A stretch of 64,000 bases of DNA from Rhodanobacter sp. OK091 (GTDB lineage Bacteria; Pseudomonadota; Gammaproteobacteria; Xanthomonadales; Rhodanobacteraceae): contig NZ_FRCH01000001.1 of the NCBI RefSeq assembly GCF_900142825.1, positions 372,001 through 436,000 on the forward strand, given 5' to 3'. Made by a program: the position numbers and the translations under genes. This document shows positions 59,594 to 64,000 of this stretch, in pieces (positions within the stretch are counted from its first letter, which is position 1; the number at the start of each line of letters is the position of its first letter). The notes beneath the pieces are model-generated. The model was given only the letters and a program-made list of their open reading frames with translations. It made no database searches and was not told the origin of the DNA.

Positions 59594-60055
59594 TTTAAAG
59601 AGTGCCTCTGCCTTTTTCAGCAATATCCCGGAGCAGATGGCACTTGGCGTGGCCGATAGCAGCGTTGACGAATACGGTCGAGATCCTGTGCCTAGGTTGC
59701 CCGGCACCTCGGTCTTGCTGTTTCCCTTGACGATGATTTCCAGGCGCGTCGAGCGAGGTTAGACCGTTGACGTCCAGGCATTCTTTCAAGCTGCAGTGGT
59801 GTCAATTCAGGATTTTCAGCAGTAGATTGAAATGTCCGCTTCCGACCCTTTGCTGCCTTACGGACTTTCCGAAACAAGCCGTTCCAACATGGAATAGCGG
59901 ACGCTGACGATCGGCCATCCATAGCTTTCCAAAGCCACGGCAACCCGCAGAATTTGTGCAGGCGTTAGCGTCCCAGACCAAACGGACCCGACTGTCGACG
60001 CATGAGAGTGCCTCGAACTTTGGCATTGCTTGGCAGTATTTATGCCCGTGTATTA
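59594..60055. other. intergenic stretch before DUF2239 operon
   Basis: No frame recognised. Minus-strand frames (for instance ending at 59802 and 59595) have no family match and may be remnants of a lost gene. The right part is AT-rich and leads into the promoter at 60056. Confidence 0.4.
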
Positions 60056-60084
60056 TTGACAGTGTTTTAACCCGGGTATAAATT
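60056..60084 (+). promoter_or_regulatory. sigma-70-type promoter for the DUF2239 operon
   Basis: -35 TTGACA (60056-60061), 17-bp spacer, -10 TAAATT (60079-60084), or TATAAA with a 15-bp spacer. The gene starts 31 bp downstream. The palindrome CCCGGG lies between the boxes. Confidence 0.65.
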
Positions 60085-60114
60085 GCAGGCCATTCCAGAT
60101 TCGAGATTCAAGTG

Positions 60115-60792
60115 ATGTCACGCGAGTCCCTCCCTCTCTATACCTGCTTCAACGGTCACCGTCGTGTCGTGACGGGTCCACTGGAAACTGTTGCCTTGGC
60201 GGTTAAGCAGGCCGCCGAAAGTGGTGCCGTGGGCCCCCTTTTGATCTTCGATGACACAACCGGGCGCTCGATCGACATCGATACGAGAGGTTCAGATCAG
60301 GAAGTGTTGGCTCGCCTCGCCTCGCACCCGGCCAACACCGAGGGTCGTACCGAGTCAGAGCAACCGGACTATCCACTTCGAGCCGCTCCTGATCCCATCG
60401 ATGCTGACGTTCCAGCGAACCAACCCCGTGGGCGTGGGCGTCCCAAGCTAGGCGTGGTAGCCCGCGAAGTTACCCTGCTGCCGCGTCACTGGGAATGGTT
60501 GACCGCACAACCCGGTAGCGCCTCCGTAGCTTTGCGAAAGCTCGTCGATGAGGCGAGACGAACGCATGGGGAGAAAGACAGGCGTCGTAGAGCGCAGGAG
60601 CGTGCTTACCATTTTATGTCTGCGATGGCCGGAGACATGCCCGGTTTTGAAGAAGCTACGCGCGTGCTATTTGCGAACGATCAGCCACGCTTCCGCGAGC
60701 TTGTTGCCACATGGCCCGAGGGCGTGCGCGATCACGCAACCGCGCTCGCTTTCGGCGCTGACCACGATGTGTGCCCGACAACCCTCGGATAG
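60115..60792 (+). CDS. DUF2239 family protein
   Basis: 225 residues from the ATG at 60115 (an in-frame GTG is just before). Family blocks: YTCFNGHRRVVTGPLETVALAVKQAAESG, LLIFDDTTGRSIDIDTRGSDQEVLARL, and RGRPKLGVVAREVTLLPRHWEWLTAQPGSASVALRKLVDEARR. Soluble, basic in the middle. Function unknown. It precedes the carotenoid-oxygenase gene by 13 bp under one promoter. Confidence 0.9.
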   Translation: MSRESLPLYTCFNGHRRVVTGPLETVALAVKQAAESGAVGPLLIFDDTTGRSIDIDTRGSDQEVLARLASHPANTEGRTESEQPDYPLRAAPDPIDADVPANQPRGRGRPKLGVVAREVTLLPRHWEWLTAQPGSASVALRKLVDEARRTHGEKDRRRRAQERAYHFMSAMAGDMPGFEEATRVLFANDQPRFRELVATWPEGVRDHATALAFGADHDVCPTTLG

Positions 60793-60805
60793 AAGGACTA
60801 CAAAC

Positions 60806-62137
60806 ATGGCCACAATCGACCTGAATTCAGGTGCAGCAGCGGCTGTCCTTGATGAAGTTGACCTTGTCGATCTTCCCGTCATTGGAGCGATTCCGGAAGA
60901 TCTCAACGGTGTGCTGGTACGCAACGGGCCCAACCCTTTGGGTGGCCGTTTCAAGGGAAACGACGTGTTGGACTGGTGGCCCGAAGATGCGATGTTGCAT
61001 GGCATCTCGCTGCATGGCGGCCGCGCAACGAGTTACAGAAATCGCTGGGCTCGTACAAAACGATGGGCTGACGTGTACAGCCCTGATGCTTCACTGGCCC
61101 TGCTCGATACGAATCCGAACGTTAATGTGCTCTATCACGCCGGCGAAATATTGGCGCTGTCTGAAGGCGGTGCCCCGCTTGCTATTACGGCTAAGCTCGA
61201 AACTCTCGGAGCATCCCGTCGTCACCTGGGGATGACGAACGGTATGACGGCCCATCCCAAAGTTGACGCTCAGACAGGTGAACTCATGACCTTTCGAGCC
61301 GATTGGAAGAAGCCGTTTTTGCGCTACGGGGTGACAGACGCGGAAGGTACATCCAGCGTCGACGTCGACATCGAGATGTCATCTCCCTCGATGATGCACG
61401 ACATGGCCATCACCGCCACCCACAGTATCTTGCTTGACCTTAGCGTTGGGTATGACTTCTCGATGCTATCCCGTGGCCATCGCATGCCATTGCGTTGGCG
61501 TGACGACCATAGGGCGCGGCTGGGCATCATTCCTCGTCATGGCGGCGAGATGCGTTGGTTTGAAATTGCACCGTGCTTTATCCAGCATGTGGTGAACGCG
61601 TACGACGCAGATGAGTCTACGGTCGTGCTGGATGCCGTTCGATATCCACAGTACTTTCGTCTCGCGGACAACGGTTTGACGTTCGAGGAAAATCCACTCG
61701 GAGTTCTGTGGCGCTACGTCATCGACCTTGACAGGGGAACCGTGACCGAAAGACAAATTGATGATGTCTGTATCGAACTGCCTCGCATCAACGAAGGCCG
61801 AACAGGCCATCCTTATCGATTTCTCTACGCTGCGGAGCAGCCAACAAATACTGAGTTCCGAGGTGTCGTCCGCTACGATCTCGAGTCGGGTTCGATGCAG
61901 CGATATAGGGTTCCAGAAGGAGACCAAAACAGCGAGCCGGTGTTCGTAGCGCGTCCCAATGCTTCTGATGAAGACGATGGCTGGCTGCTCGTCTGTGTCT
62001 ATCGACGAGCAACAGATACCAGTGACTTGGTCATTCTCGACGGCAGGAATATCGATAGTGATCCGATAGCGACAGTACGGCTGCCCAGGCGAATTCCTGC
62101 AGGATTTCACGGGGTATGGCTGCCAAAGGACTGCTAA
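60806..62137 (+). CDS. carotenoid oxygenase family dioxygenase
   Basis: 443 residues from the ATG at 60806 with AGAAGGA upstream. All four iron-binding histidines of the seven-bladed propeller are found: H150 (GMTAHPK), H198 (MMHDMAIT), H261 (FIQHVVNAYD) and H435 (GFHGVW). These enzymes cleave carotenoids, stilbenes or lignin-derived phenolics with O2. Substrate cannot be told. It is in an operon with DUF2239. Confidence 0.93.
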   Translation: MATIDLNSGAAAAVLDEVDLVDLPVIGAIPEDLNGVLVRNGPNPLGGRFKGNDVLDWWPEDAMLHGISLHGGRATSYRNRWARTKRWADVYSPDASLALLDTNPNVNVLYHAGEILALSEGGAPLAITAKLETLGASRRHLGMTNGMTAHPKVDAQTGELMTFRADWKKPFLRYGVTDAEGTSSVDVDIEMSSPSMMHDMAITATHSILLDLSVGYDFSMLSRGHRMPLRWRDDHRARLGIIPRHGGEMRWFEIAPCFIQHVVNAYDADESTVVLDAVRYPQYFRLADNGLTFEENPLGVLWRYVIDLDRGTVTERQIDDVCIELPRINEGRTGHPYRFLYAAEQPTNTEFRGVVRYDLESGSMQRYRVPEGDQNSEPVFVARPNASDEDDGWLLVCVYRRATDTSDLVILDGRNIDSDPIATVRLPRRIPAGFHGVWLPKDC

Positions 62138-62506
62138 GTCGCCGCGAAGGTCTTCCCCCGCTGCGCCGTATGCTGCTAGCAGCAAGCGAGTCCTTGAATG
62201 GCTGTTTACGGGAAAGCCGACAGGATGACCTGTAGGTCCGCTCCTGGCCGAAGTCGGCCGGTCGACTCTCGCTGTTGGCGAGCCTGGCCAGTTCCACTGG
62301 TGGTGGTGGTTGGGCTCGCCAACGGGAGTGGGCAAACGCGATGGCGATGATGGGCAGCGTGGCCGCCGGCCGTGGTCAGATTCGCTGGCGGAGCTGGTCA
62401 GTGGCTGTGGCGAAGGTGAGCAGGCGGCAGGCGTTTTGCAATCAGGGGCCAGGGCTCGTTTCACCGTTTCGAGAGCCCCTTCCCGGGCCATCTCATCCTG
62501 ACCCGG
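62138..62506. other. intergenic stretch with a short palindrome
   Basis: TGCTGCTAGCAGCA (62171-62184) is a perfect 14-bp palindrome, possibly part of a terminator of the dioxygenase operon. Otherwise no feature is recognised. Confidence 0.45.
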
Positions 62507-62743
62507 TTAGCCGGATGCCCGTTCCTGTTCGAGCCTCTGCTCGTTGACCTGATCGAGAATCTCCCGCAGGGCAAGCGCCGAATCGAGGATGGCCTCCCCC
62601 AGCGTCGACACGCTCTGGGGTTGCAAGTACGACGTATCGCAGAACGTCATCGCGTCGCCATTGGCAGTGATCGTCCGCAGCAAAGTGTTTAGCTCGTCGA
62701 TCTGGTCGATGGTGACTCCGAAAACAAGGTGTTCGTCCGTCAT
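62507..62743 (-). CDS. small hypothetical protein divergent from XRE gene
   Basis: 78 residues from the ATG at 62741-62743, which has GGAGGAGGG upstream; a longer in-frame reading is not needed. It starts MTDEHLVFGVTIDQIDELNT and has a helix-rich end (LGEAILDSALALREILDQVNEQRLEQERA). This end resembles small DUF3077/DUF6124-type proteins of gamma-proteobacteria. Function unknown. Its start is 115 bp from the divergent XRE gene. Confidence 0.7.
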   Translation of the reverse strand: MTDEHLVFGVTIDQIDELNTLLRTITANGDAMTFCDTSYLQPQSVSTLGEAILDSALALREILDQVNEQRLEQERASG

Positions 62744-62858
62744 GGCATCCCTCCTCCGGTGATATGGCGGACATGGCCGTCCGCATGACAACAATATCCC
62801 GTTTTCAGATATTTGAAAAGCAGATATAGCGTCATGGCGGTCTTCACGGATCGTCATC

Positions 62859-63146
62859 ATGCCAGCCAAATCCATACACAAGAGCGAGTACCTGGTGCTG
62901 CTGCGCCGCCTGCGTGCACTTCGCACAGCGGCCGGCCTGACCCAAGTAGCGCTAAGCGTGGAGCTGCAGCGCCCTCAGTCCTATGTCAGCGACGTCGAAC
63001 GTGGCTCACGTCGGATGGACCTGCTTCAGTTGCGTGAACTCTGCAATGCTTGCGGGCAATCACTGACCGAATTCGTCGATGAATTCGAACAGGAGCTGGG
63101 ACAAGTAAAGCCTACTCGCAGGCCACCAAAGCGACCGTCCCGATAA
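62859..63146 (+). CDS. small XRE-family transcriptional regulator
   Basis: 95 residues. A single Cro/CI helix-turn-helix (YLVLLRRLRALRTAAGLTQVALSVELQRPQSYVSDVERGSRRMDLLQLRELCNACGQSLTEFVDEFEQEL) and a basic tail (KPTRRPPKRPSR). It could be an autoregulator of its divergent partner. It lies 104 bp left of the palindrome array at 63250-63518, and is the nearest DNA-binding protein to it. Confidence 0.92.
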   Translation: MPAKSIHKSEYLVLLRRLRALRTAAGLTQVALSVELQRPQSYVSDVERGSRRMDLLQLRELCNACGQSLTEFVDEFEQELGQVKPTRRPPKRPSR

Positions 63147-63238
63147 GTGAACCCGACCCCGTTACTGTTTTACCGGCAGCACCCGTTCTGAGCGTTCGTG
63201 TTCAAAGGTGTCCGTCAAACCCGGGCCAGCTCACGCTG
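63147..63238. repeat. three dispersed repeat pieces in a row
   Basis: 63147-63164 is a 'GTGAACCCGACCCCGTTA' unit (as at 25092); 63167-63206 is a third copy of the mtfA tail including its stop; 63214-63238 is the 25-bp unit also at 36523-36547. Together they fill the gap between the XRE gene and the phased array. Confidence 0.75.
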
Positions 63239-63249
63239 ACCCTGAGGTA

Positions 63250-63518
63250 CTTATCGATGAGGCTCGTCCACCTCGACGATGCGTCGCATCGCCTCACGCG
63301 TGAGGCTCGGGCATGTCATCGATGAGGCAAATCGGCTCAGTGACGAGTTAAAAGGGCTCGGGCGTGAGTGTGCGGAGCCTCATCGTTGAGTATCCGCGAC
63401 CTCATACATGAGTCGTTCCGGCTCAGCGTTGAGGCAAAAACACTCAACATTGAGCCGGCGGGAGTCAGCGATGAGGTGCCATCGCCTCGGCGATGACGAC
63501 CAAAGACTCAACCGTCAC
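63250..63518. repeat. phased array of 13 CTCA-N4-TGAG palindromes, 21/22-bp period
   Basis: Unit starts: 63250, 63272, 63293, 63315, 63336, 63357, 63379, 63401, 63422, 63443, 63464, 63486, 63507. Spacing is 22, 21, 22, 21, 21, 22, 22, 21, 21, 21, 22, 21 (mean 21.4). Five units match CTCA-N4-TGAG exactly, five differ at one base, three at two. Consensus CTCA-N-CG-N-TGAG. Spacers between units are 9 or 10 bp and all different. The period is not a multiple of three, so this is not a coding repeat. A weaker unit may stand at 63230. Ends at an A6 run and a terminator stem. Confidence 0.9.
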
Positions 63519-63563
63519 AAAAAAGGCCTGACGGGTCGCCGGAGTGGCAGGCCGCGTCAGGCC
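63519..63563 (-). terminator. Rho-independent terminator of the right-end gene
   Basis: Stem GGCCTGACG (63525-63533) and CGTCAGGCC (63555-63563), with A6 at 63519-63524 which is T6 on the minus strand. It ends the gene at 63621-64000 and separates it from the palindrome array. Confidence 0.85.
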
Positions 63564-63620
63564 GGGTGGTGCAGCTTTGCGTGTCGATCACCGCGGTGAG
63601 CAGCACGCCGGCAGGCGCGC

Positions 63621-64000
63621 TCAGGGCGCCGGGACGTCGGCGACGCGGCGGCTCTTGGCGAAGCGGCTGGACAGCTCTTGCCGCAGGCCGTCCAGGCCCT
63701 GGTTCTTGCCGGACACCTTGAGCAGGCCGTAACCCTCCAGCGCGGTGCTCATGATGTCGCTGCCCAGCGCCGTCTCCGTATCCTCGCCCCGCTCCACCAG
63801 CTGCTTCATTCGCTGCAGGCGCGGGCGCAACGCGTCCAGCGCGGCCACGTCCTGCTGCGCCTCGGCCAGGCCCAGGCTAGGCGGCACGATCTGCGGGTTG
63901 TTGGTCAGCACGTTGAGCGTCTGCCGGCCGAACTGCTCCGACTTCTCGCCCATCTTGTACAACTCGCGCCGCTGCGACGGCTGCAAGGCAACGAGGCCGG
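63621..64000 (-). CDS. uncharacterised helical protein (N-terminus outside window)
   Basis: At least 126 residues; the frame is open to the right edge, so the true start may lie beyond it (the TTG at 63984-63986 is only the first start-like codon). The sequence YKMGEKSEQFGRQTLNVLTN, an AEAQQDVAALDALRPRLQRM coil, ETALGSDIMSTALEGYGLLK and a basic end (RFAKSRRVADVPAP) predict an all-helical protein. I recall similar uncharacterised proteins in Xanthomonadales but cannot name a family. The neighbouring palindrome array may be functionally linked. Confidence 0.7.
   Translation of the reverse strand, partial: GLVALQPSQRRELYKMGEKSEQFGRQTLNVLTNNPQIVPPSLGLAEAQQDVAALDALRPRLQRMKQLVERGEDTETALGSDIMSTALEGYGLLKVSGKNQGLDGLRQELSSRFAKSRRVADVPAP

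What the first reader, a model, noticed from the sequence alone, without database searches (positions are those of the whole stretch)
63250..63518. Thirteen short palindromes at a strict 21/22-bp period with non-identical spacers
The block CTCA-N4-TGAG occurs 13 times with steps of 21 or 22 bp and no gap (mean 21.4 bp, two turns of DNA, so all sites face one side of the helix). The half-sites are conserved while the four central bases and the 9-10 bp spacers vary, so this is not simple tandem duplication. Two readings fit: (a) a phased array of operators or a centromere-like/loading site for a dimeric DNA-binding protein, perhaps the small XRE protein at 62859; (b) a miniature repeat-spacer RNA array. 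Its dimensions (about 9-nt spacers between short conserved blocks) are reminiscent of the TIGR arrays described with Tas proteins, but no Nop-domain or nuclease gene is visible here. I know of no named element with this form.
Basis: partly seen in the sequence, partly recalled or inferred. Interest (0 to 1): 0.93.

Follow-up and report, generated by a model that had tools for sequence, protein, structure and literature searches.

The report
Phased palindrome array with protein partner
Next to a gene for a small protein of unknown function, here and in distantly related bacteria, lies a row of short two-fold symmetric DNA sites spaced 21 or 22 base pairs (about two helix turns) apart, which the protein likely binds in a stack along one face of the DNA.

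Summary
In detail: 13 CTCA-N4-TGAG-like palindromes at 63250-63518, every step 21 or 22 bp (5 exact, 5 with one mismatch, 3 with two), far beyond chance. It is not isolated: arrays of this kind occur elsewhere in Rhodanobacteraceae and in cyanobacteria and Bacteroidota. The recurring neighbour is the 63621-64000 gene (155 aa, no known domain), not the XRE gene. Searching by protein alone and testing flanks only for 21/22-bp periodicity, 41 of 54 full-length homologues have an array downstream or upstream, against 1 of 203 window segments. The palindrome differs between paralogues; the two-turn step and the symmetry persist. Half-sites diverge more slowly than the rest, the outer half-site pairs do not covary as RNA stems would, and unit order does not favour folding; this points to double-stranded DNA. 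Best reading: an undescribed two-part chromosomal system in which the small protein likely binds its phased array as dimers and builds a one-sided nucleoprotein patch. Binding is inferred. The TIGR reading is not supported: 0 of 8 array-bearing genomes have a Nop protein.

The parts
63250..63518 (.). Array of 13 phased palindromes, consensus CTCR-N4-YGAG with a mostly CG or GC central step; 9-bp spacers (SC-N5-GS, the core often a run of A or T) or 10-bp spacers
   Evidence: consensus from 137 sites of related arrays; orthologous arrays compared
63621..64000 (-). 3' part of the partner gene (155 aa; it runs on to contig position 436088, i.e. 64088 on the window's scale); uncharacterised protein, predicted all-helical
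   Evidence: family; structure; association with arrays
63519..63563 (-). Terminator-like inverted repeat of the partner gene (arms GGCCTGACG 63525-63533 and CGTCAGGCC 63555-63563, then six T at 63524-63519), lying between gene and array
   Evidence: read from the sequence; its loop is too long for the scan, which did not list it
62859..63146 (+). XRE-type helix-turn-helix gene on the other side of the array (95 aa); not a constant neighbour of arrays
   Evidence: Pfam HTH_31 8e-12 and HTH_3 3e-8; homologue in G018, none found at the G023 locus

Best explanation
The block is a helically phased palindrome array lying beside a gene for a small uncharacterised protein, many of whose homologues in other bacteria also lie beside such arrays, and that protein likely binds the sites as dimers and would build a one-sided nucleoprotein patch on them. 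Shown here: the array, its two-turn spacing and dyad symmetry, the slower divergence of the half-sites, and the gene-array association in Gammaproteobacteria, with further cases in cyanobacteria and Bacteroidota. Inferred: dimer binding with one monomer per DNA turn, which would put every dimer on the same face so that neighbours touch and the patch oligomerises. Inferred more weakly: patches on the further arrays of the same genome are bridged or looped to the gene-side array, which would make this a small site-specific chromosome-organising or silencing system. Each paralogue would read its own half-site.
For: Array-blind test: genes found by protein search, flanks tested for 21/22-bp periodicity without any motif: 41 of 54 full-length homologues have an array (22 of 24 Rhodanobacter, the window's own included; 15 of 25 other Rhodanobacteraceae; 4 of 5 other Gammaproteobacteria), downstream in 32, upstream in 9; 42 of the 49 arrays found (partial genes included) are dyad-symmetric at p<=0.05 against column shuffles. 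Background: 1 of 203 window segments, and 2 of 125 in other loci, both from one array-like stretch. Reverse test: in 14 of 14 array loci with a homologue at E<0.01 the array is 3' of the gene, among them Nostoc, Fischerella, Phormidium, Aquimarina, Flavobacterium, Lysobacter and Tahibacter (names). Steps 21 (92), 22 (44), 20 (1) in 12 arrays; 21s and 22s are interleaved so that phase drifts less than in random order (p=0.022, ten arrays). Half-sites diverge less than the rest: 10/104 vs 37/165, p=0.008 (G018); 20/103 vs 76/163, p=7e-6 (G023). Arrays of one genome share spacer edges: 63 of 70 spacer ends T[GA] in three G252 arrays, 90 of 118 [GCT]C in five G023 arrays.
Against: No binding was measured. 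The protein is acidic (pI 5.5; 5.2-9.4 in the 19 rows of A2), has no significant match to a known DNA-binding domain and no fold match. 13 of 54 full-length homologues have no detectable array. CTCA arrays occur without a close homologue in G004, G016 and G035; only 9 of 90 array loci of the genome-contig scan hold a homologue in the DNA held, some of the 90 probably being coding repeats. In array-blind loci array similarity does not follow protein identity below 70% (r=-0.06, p=0.72). Two of the three G252 arrays are 94% identical copies, so shared style partly reflects copying, and between those two the half-sites are not significantly slower (4/96 vs 11/149, p=0.42).
Confidence: 0.52

Rival explanations
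1. The array is the gene's own operator or a cis-regulatory block: an autoregulatory or insulator site for the protein or for a neighbouring gene, with no role elsewhere in the chromosome.
For: In 9 of 41 array-blind cases the array lies upstream, about 200-500 bp before the start codon in the examples printed. In G000 the exact pattern is found only beside the gene.
Against: In 32 of 41 cases it lies downstream, in the window beyond a terminator-like hairpin, where it could hardly control that gene's promoter; further arrays lie far from the gene in G023, G252 and G018.
Confidence: 0.15
2. The array is transcribed into a repeat RNA (TIGR-like guides, or a CsrB-like sponge) that the small protein binds.
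For: Repeat length, 9-10 nt spacers and position beside a gene resemble TIGR arrays (PMC12045711, passages). Both strands fold better than dinucleotide shuffles (z -6.4 and -5.1). Cyanobacterial arrays show mild covariation at pair 4/9 (z 2.4). One-sided changes at pair 4/9 are often all of the G-T or all of the A-C kind within one array (25 of the rarer against 140 of the commoner kind in 34 arrays not oriented by a gene), as wobble pairing on one transcribed strand would give; in the 14 gene-oriented arrays the split is weak (A-C 32, G-T 19).
Against: Pairs 1/12 and 2/11 show no excess of complementary changes and 3/10 none beyond z 1.6, in 187 and 398 sites. The one-sided bias is also what unit copying from an asymmetric ancestor gives; it was not separated from that. 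In 13 arrays the folding energy of the real unit order is within -1.7 to +1.9 sd of unit-permuted controls on both strands. No Nop protein in 8 genomes. No sigma-70-like promoter was listed inside the array.
Confidence: 0.12
3. The arrays are dispersed repeats of REP/BIME type, spread by a transposase encoded elsewhere (RAYT) or by duplication, and the small protein is incidental or exploits them.
For: Arrays are duplicated within genomes: L050 and L088 are 94% identical and share about 100 bp of flank, and L033 and L034 align in unit order better than permuted controls. Y1 transposase domains occur in 10 of 11 genomes tested. Some arrays lack the gene.
Against: Copies seen per genome are few (1 to 5, in searches that score a limited number of candidates); the only G000 Y1_Tnp match lies on another contig than the array; and the partner gene sits beside arrays of differing sequence in 41 of 54 cases, which a passive repeat would not explain.
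Confidence: 0.1
4. The XRE protein at 62859-63146 is the array's ligand.
For: It lies next to the array in G000 and has a homologue (93% over 83 aa) near the orthologous array in G018.
Against: No homologue was found at the orthologous G023 locus, and no XRE cluster is among the listed gene clusters shared by three or more array loci.
Confidence: 0.06
5. It is a neutral minisatellite that happens to be palindromic.
For: Some arrays look like products of tandem duplication, e.g. a repeated five-unit block in L037 as I read the list, and many cyanobacterial units are nearly identical.
Against: The window array and its G018 orthologue align without internal gaps over 13 units and half-sites diverge more slowly; arrays with different sequences keep the same step, symmetry and flanking gene.
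Confidence: 0.03

Closest known systems
[quoted passage not shown]
   Same: Short repeats with 9-nt spacers, most often 5 to 15 units, up- or downstream of one associated gene; repeat sequence differs between loci (PMC12045711, passages read).
   Different: One dyad-symmetric 12-bp site instead of two alternating repeats, step 21/22, spacers with their own consensus, no Nop protein. TIGR is said to be mostly in mobile elements; the partner here matched 0 of 50,697 phage and 1 of 72,556 plasmid records (single-sequence searches).
REP/BIME/REPIN elements with RAYT transposases
   Same: Extragenic palindromes, dispersed in a chromosome, each type linked to a gene flanked by the same palindrome (recalled; of PMC3733652 and PMC3116915 only the starts of the abstracts were seen in listings).
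   Different: Strict two-turn arrays of about 13 sites, few per genome, and a 155-aa all-helical partner without a transposase domain.
Plasmid iterons and Rep proteins
   Same: Tandem sites spaced by whole helix turns (about 22 bp in some plasmids) beside the gene of the binder (recalled, no call).
   Different: Dyad-symmetric sites, position on a 2.13-Mb contig, no known Rep domain in the partner.
EBNA1/LANA-type dyad arrays (family of repeats, dyad symmetry element)
   Same: Dimer sites 21 bp apart centre to centre, cooperative binding and looping between arrays (PMC3798644, two passages): a physical model for what is proposed here.
   Different: Viral episome maintenance; no homology shown or claimed.
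Bacterial centromere sites (parS, parC) with ParB/ParR-type adaptors
   Same: Arrays of binding sites beside the gene of a small dimeric binder (recalled, no call).
   Different: No partition family among the partner's weak Pfam, NCBIfam, PHROG or PADLOC matches; a motor gene was not searched for.

Membership tests
TIGR-Tas | Nop-domain Tas protein | tested here: not met
   PF01798 in 0 of 8 array-bearing genomes; control search rings in 4 of 14 known genomes, all archaeal
TIGR-Tas | two alternating 8-12-nt repeats (edge and loop) with 9-nt spacers | tested here: not met
   one class of 12-bp dyad site, steps 21 or 22; definition
TIGR-Tas | array processed to 36-nt RNAs | not testable with these tools
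   no RNA data
CRISPR array | 25-36-nt repeats with spacers of similar size (as stated in PMC12045711) | tested here: not met
   12-bp sites, 9-10-bp spacers
REP/RAYT | cognate Y1 transposase gene flanked by the repeat | tested here: not met
   the only G000 Y1_Tnp match is on contig C4, the array on C2
Plasmid iteron array | plasmid replication origin with a Rep initiator gene | tested here: not met
   2.13-Mb contig; partner has no Pfam match above cut-off
Partition centromere | adaptor protein plus ParA/ParM/TubZ motor gene | not tested
   motor families were not searched; partner has no significant family match
PARCEL coding repeats | tandem palindromic DNA coding for 25-residue repeats | tested here: not met
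   22-bp steps break the frame and no listed ORF spans the array; definition from the abstract of PMC2996958
Two-part gene-plus-phased-array system proposed here | homologue of the 155-aa protein adjacent to the array | tested here: met
Two-part gene-plus-phased-array system proposed here | protein binds the array | not testable with these tools
   needs binding assays
Known protein fold | structural relative in the PDB | tested here: inconclusive

The most novel reading that the evidence does not exclude
A widespread, undescribed bacterial system of chromosomal address labels: each paralogous 155-aa protein polymerises on its own two-turn-phased palindrome array beside its gene and joins it to the sister arrays elsewhere in the chromosome, and new paralogues switch half-site while keeping the geometry, giving mutually orthogonal DNA-bridging complexes in one cell.
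Probability: 0.3. Interest if true: 0.95.

Novelty: categorically new. Interest (0 to 1): 0.86.

Why it matters
At least 2,164 related proteins, without a named function in the listings seen, gain a concrete molecular context: a companion DNA array with conserved geometry and changing sequence. If binding is confirmed, this would be a family of DNA-organising or silencing complexes found in at least three phyla, with paralogues of different half-site in one genome, a natural set for studying how protein-DNA specificity diversifies and a possible source of orthogonal DNA-tethering tools.

Tried and rejected
XRE protein as partner: not conserved in the loci compared. RNA stems: no covariation of the outer half-site pairs, and the strong folding z-scores vanish against unit-permuted controls; the one-sided bias is told under the RNA rival, whose odds I raised from 0.10 to 0.12 when I put it in. 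Mirror test of protein identity against array similarity: r=0.21, p=0.011 for 25 representatives including loci chosen by the CTCA pattern, but r=-0.06, p=0.72 once those are removed; not used as support. G014, G230 and G228 matches rejected: L089 (G014) is a nearly uniform 21-bp repeat that I take for coding (not tested), L090 and L091 have chains of 2-3 sites. A further weak R1 match in G018 (C74) was not inspected. Scan loci L111, L154, L157, L170 and L179 lie in long open frames and are probably coding; L179 was still among the 29 loci of the cyanobacterial set. The viral scan gave 30 stretches; the chains listed for them have at most 7 sites and were not followed up. PADLOC model PDLC01309 (Cas3) matched 4 of 19 homologues, best E 1e-4; taken as spurious for a helical protein. 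Rfam: no match in 60000-64000. Fold searches in PDB and BFVD found no match at E<=0.001. Nine literature searches were run: six for such arrays found no description in the titles and abstracts listed, one search found TIGR, another the LANA paper, nothing. Only open-access papers are held, so prior description elsewhere is possible.

Not counted: duplicates of the same gene (L077, L257, L276, L279-L281, L288-L291, L293-L297, L299, L300), the pieces L261, L272, L273, L298 and L301, the plasmid homologue L275 (no array), and matches for which no locus was fetched (mostly partial or at contig ends). The array threshold there is 0.14 on flanks of 700 bp (downstream) and 630 bp (upstream), while the background used 0.15 on 620-bp segments; its second background set (L016-L032) had 2 of 125, both from one array-like stretch in L026.

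Full report
WHAT IS THERE. Window 63250-63518 holds 13 sites of the form CTCA-N4-TGAG: 5 exact, 5 with one mismatch, 3 with two, at steps of 22,21,22,21,21,22,22,21,21,21,22,21 bp. The chain score is 33.2 against at most 4.7 in 20 dinucleotide shuffles. The block lies in the gap between the XRE gene (62859-63146, +) and a gene on the other strand that ends at 63621 and runs out of the window; on the contig it codes for 155 aa. Reading the sequence, an inverted repeat followed by six T (63563 down to 63519 on the minus strand) stands between that gene and the array.

NOT A SINGLE ODDITY. The exact two-site pattern occurs in 6 of 45 genomes of the genus and 8 of 233 of the family, with no match to the reversed control pattern in any of them. 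A sequence profile of four units (R1; strict filters, at most 20 candidates scored a genome) found 11 of 233 genomes, of which I accept 8 after inspection: G000, G004, G016 (3 sites only), G018, G023, G035, G227 and G252. The genus is Rhodanobacter: contig lengths of G023 and G004 equal those of Rhodanobacter sp. L36 and R. glycinis S10, and that of a G252 contig equals one of Tahibacter soli. G023 carries at least five arrays, G252 three. In 12 arrays there are 92 steps of 21 bp, 44 of 22 and one of 20.

ANATOMY. The site profile is symmetric: C T C A/G N C/G G/C N T/C G A G (137 sites); the central two bases are complementary, nearly always CG or GC, in 116 of 134 sites. Nine-bp spacers are mostly SC-N5-GS, the core often TTTTT or AAAAA in either orientation; ten-bp spacers mostly begin with G and end with C. 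In Tahibacter (G252) the site is mostly CTCACGCGTGAG and spacer edges change to T[GA]: 63 of 70 ends, against 90 of 118 ends [GCT]C in the five G023 arrays. So what is read likely reaches beyond the 12-mer, about one helix turn per half.

DNA RATHER THAN RNA. If the palindromes were RNA stems, changes in one arm would be compensated in the other. For the outer pairs they are not: 1/12 and 2/11 show no excess of complementary pairs, and 3/10 none beyond z 1.6, in 187 Rhodanobacteraceae sites and 398 cyanobacterial sites. Results on the other side: a mild excess at pair 4/9 in the cyanobacterial set (z 2.4), and a bias of one-sided changes at that pair towards one kind within an array (25 against 140 in 34 arrays), which wobble pairing on one strand or plain unit copying could give. 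Both strands of the window array fold better than dinucleotide shuffles, but this follows from the repeated dyad: permuting units within each of 13 arrays gives the same energies, z between -1.7 and +1.9. Between species, half-sites change less than the rest: 10 of 104 against 37 of 165 positions (window and G018, p=0.008), 20 of 103 against 76 of 163 (window and G023, p=7e-6); the window and G018 arrays align over 13 units without internal gaps. Between the two recent copies L050 and L088 the difference is not significant (4 of 96 against 11 of 149). The order of 21s and 22s keeps the helical phase tighter than random order (p=0.022, ten arrays).

THE PARTNER GENE. Comparing all ORFs around arrays, one family recurred: the 155-aa protein. 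With a profile, 14 array loci hold a homologue or remnant at E<0.01 and in all 14 the array lies 3' of it: G000, G018, G023, G227 (remnant), Tahibacter, Lysobacter ruishenii, Nostoc (three), Fischerella, Phormidium, a FACHB-63 cyanobacterium, Aquimarina and Flavobacterium (the last weak, E 3e-4) (names). These loci were chosen by array, so I then went the other way. Homologues were found by protein alone, and their flanks were tested for 21/22-bp self-similarity without any motif: 22 of 24 full-length genes in Rhodanobacter (the window's own included), 15 of 25 in other Rhodanobacteraceae and 4 of 5 in other Gammaproteobacteria have an array, 41 of 54 in all; of 18 partial genes, 8. Control segments: 1 of 203 in the window and 2 of 125 elsewhere, both from one array-like stretch. 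Arrays found this way were not selected for symmetry, yet 42 of 49 are dyad-symmetric (p<=0.05, column shuffles). Their sequences differ: GAGCCA..TGGCTC, CCTTGCGCGCAAGG, CGAGC..GCTCG and AACCTC types, among others. In 32 of 41 cases the array is downstream, in 9 upstream, so gene plus array is a module, not a fixed promoter layout. The family is patchy: 30 of 233 Rhodanobacteraceae genomes and 5 of 369 genomes drawn from the class.

WHAT THE PROTEIN IS. It has no significant Pfam, NCBIfam or PHROG match and at least 2,164 relatives at E<=1e-3; of the 120 listed, those with a name are 'hypothetical' or 'uncharacterized' apart from one automatic 'Flagellar protein FlgN'. A single-sequence search found none in 50,697 phage records and one in 72,556 plasmid records. 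The model is five helices, one of 53 residues, mean pLDDT 87, pTM 0.65, without a fold match at E<=0.001 in the PDB or among viral proteins. It is mildly acidic. The most conserved stretch is R-x5-MGxKS-x2-F (residues 40-53).

MECHANISM. Shown: the array, geometry, symmetry, slower divergence of half-sites, and the gene association. Inferred: the partner's dimers likely sit on the dyads; a step of two turns puts every dimer on one face, so neighbours can touch and build an oligomer. The 21-bp centre-to-centre spacing of tandem EBNA1 dimer sites (PMC3798644, passages) is a physical precedent, not a relative. That further arrays of the same genome carry the same half-site suggests bridging or a small regulon; this is the least certain step, because some are copies of each other (L050 and L088 94% identical).

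AGAINST. 13 of 54 full-length homologues lack a detectable array. G004, G016 and G035 have CTCA arrays without a close homologue. Only 9 of 90 scan loci show one within the held DNA. Below 70% identity, array similarity does not follow protein identity in array-blind loci (r=-0.06), so half-sites turn over fast or the protein does not read them. Binding is untested.

VERDICT. Observation confirmed; reading (a) kept with a different partner; reading (b) not supported. In six literature searches aimed at such arrays I found no description among the papers listed. I file it under no known family.

Noticed in passing
window 63164-63243: Two short stretches between the XRE gene and the array recur dispersed in other Rhodanobacter genomes and elsewhere in G000 at 86-100% identity; they account for most of the matches listed (28 of 60 genomes matched) and look like a separate dispersed repeat.
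   Followed up: partly
L127:22-209, L124, L226, L177, L184: Rumen Bacteroidales carry palindromes of form GTCTCA-N4-TGAGAC or similar at a constant 22-bp step, without an open frame through them and without a homologue of the 155-aa protein in the held DNA: perhaps a second system of the same geometry.
   Followed up: no
L120:6900-7084, L183:5598-5761: Nocardioides sp. SLBN-35 has several mostly 22-bp palindrome arrays (CTCACCGTTGAGTTGCCGCAGA type), in these two cases between convergent predicted genes.
   Followed up: no
L259, L263, L266, L268-L271, L274 (G428): One gammaproteobacterial genome has many similar, decayed copies of the partner gene, several with an array of CCTTGCGCGCAAGG type; some copies are interrupted near residue 44.
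   Followed up: partly
L216:6956-7492, L223:6103-6677: In Aquimarina and Flavobacterium the homologue's reading frame is also interrupted, somewhere between residues 43 and 68, near the most conserved motif.
   Followed up: no
L026:200-560 (G033): A 21-bp phased array of GGAACCTCC..GGTTC type, found by chance in a control set; no homologue was looked for nearby.
   Followed up: no
L222:3819-4229 (Luteimonas mephitis): A 20-site array at constant 21 bp without an open frame through it and without a detected homologue of the partner.
   Followed up: no
alignment A2: Four of 19 homologues match PADLOC model PDLC01309 (Cas3), best E 1e-4; probably compositional.
   Followed up: no
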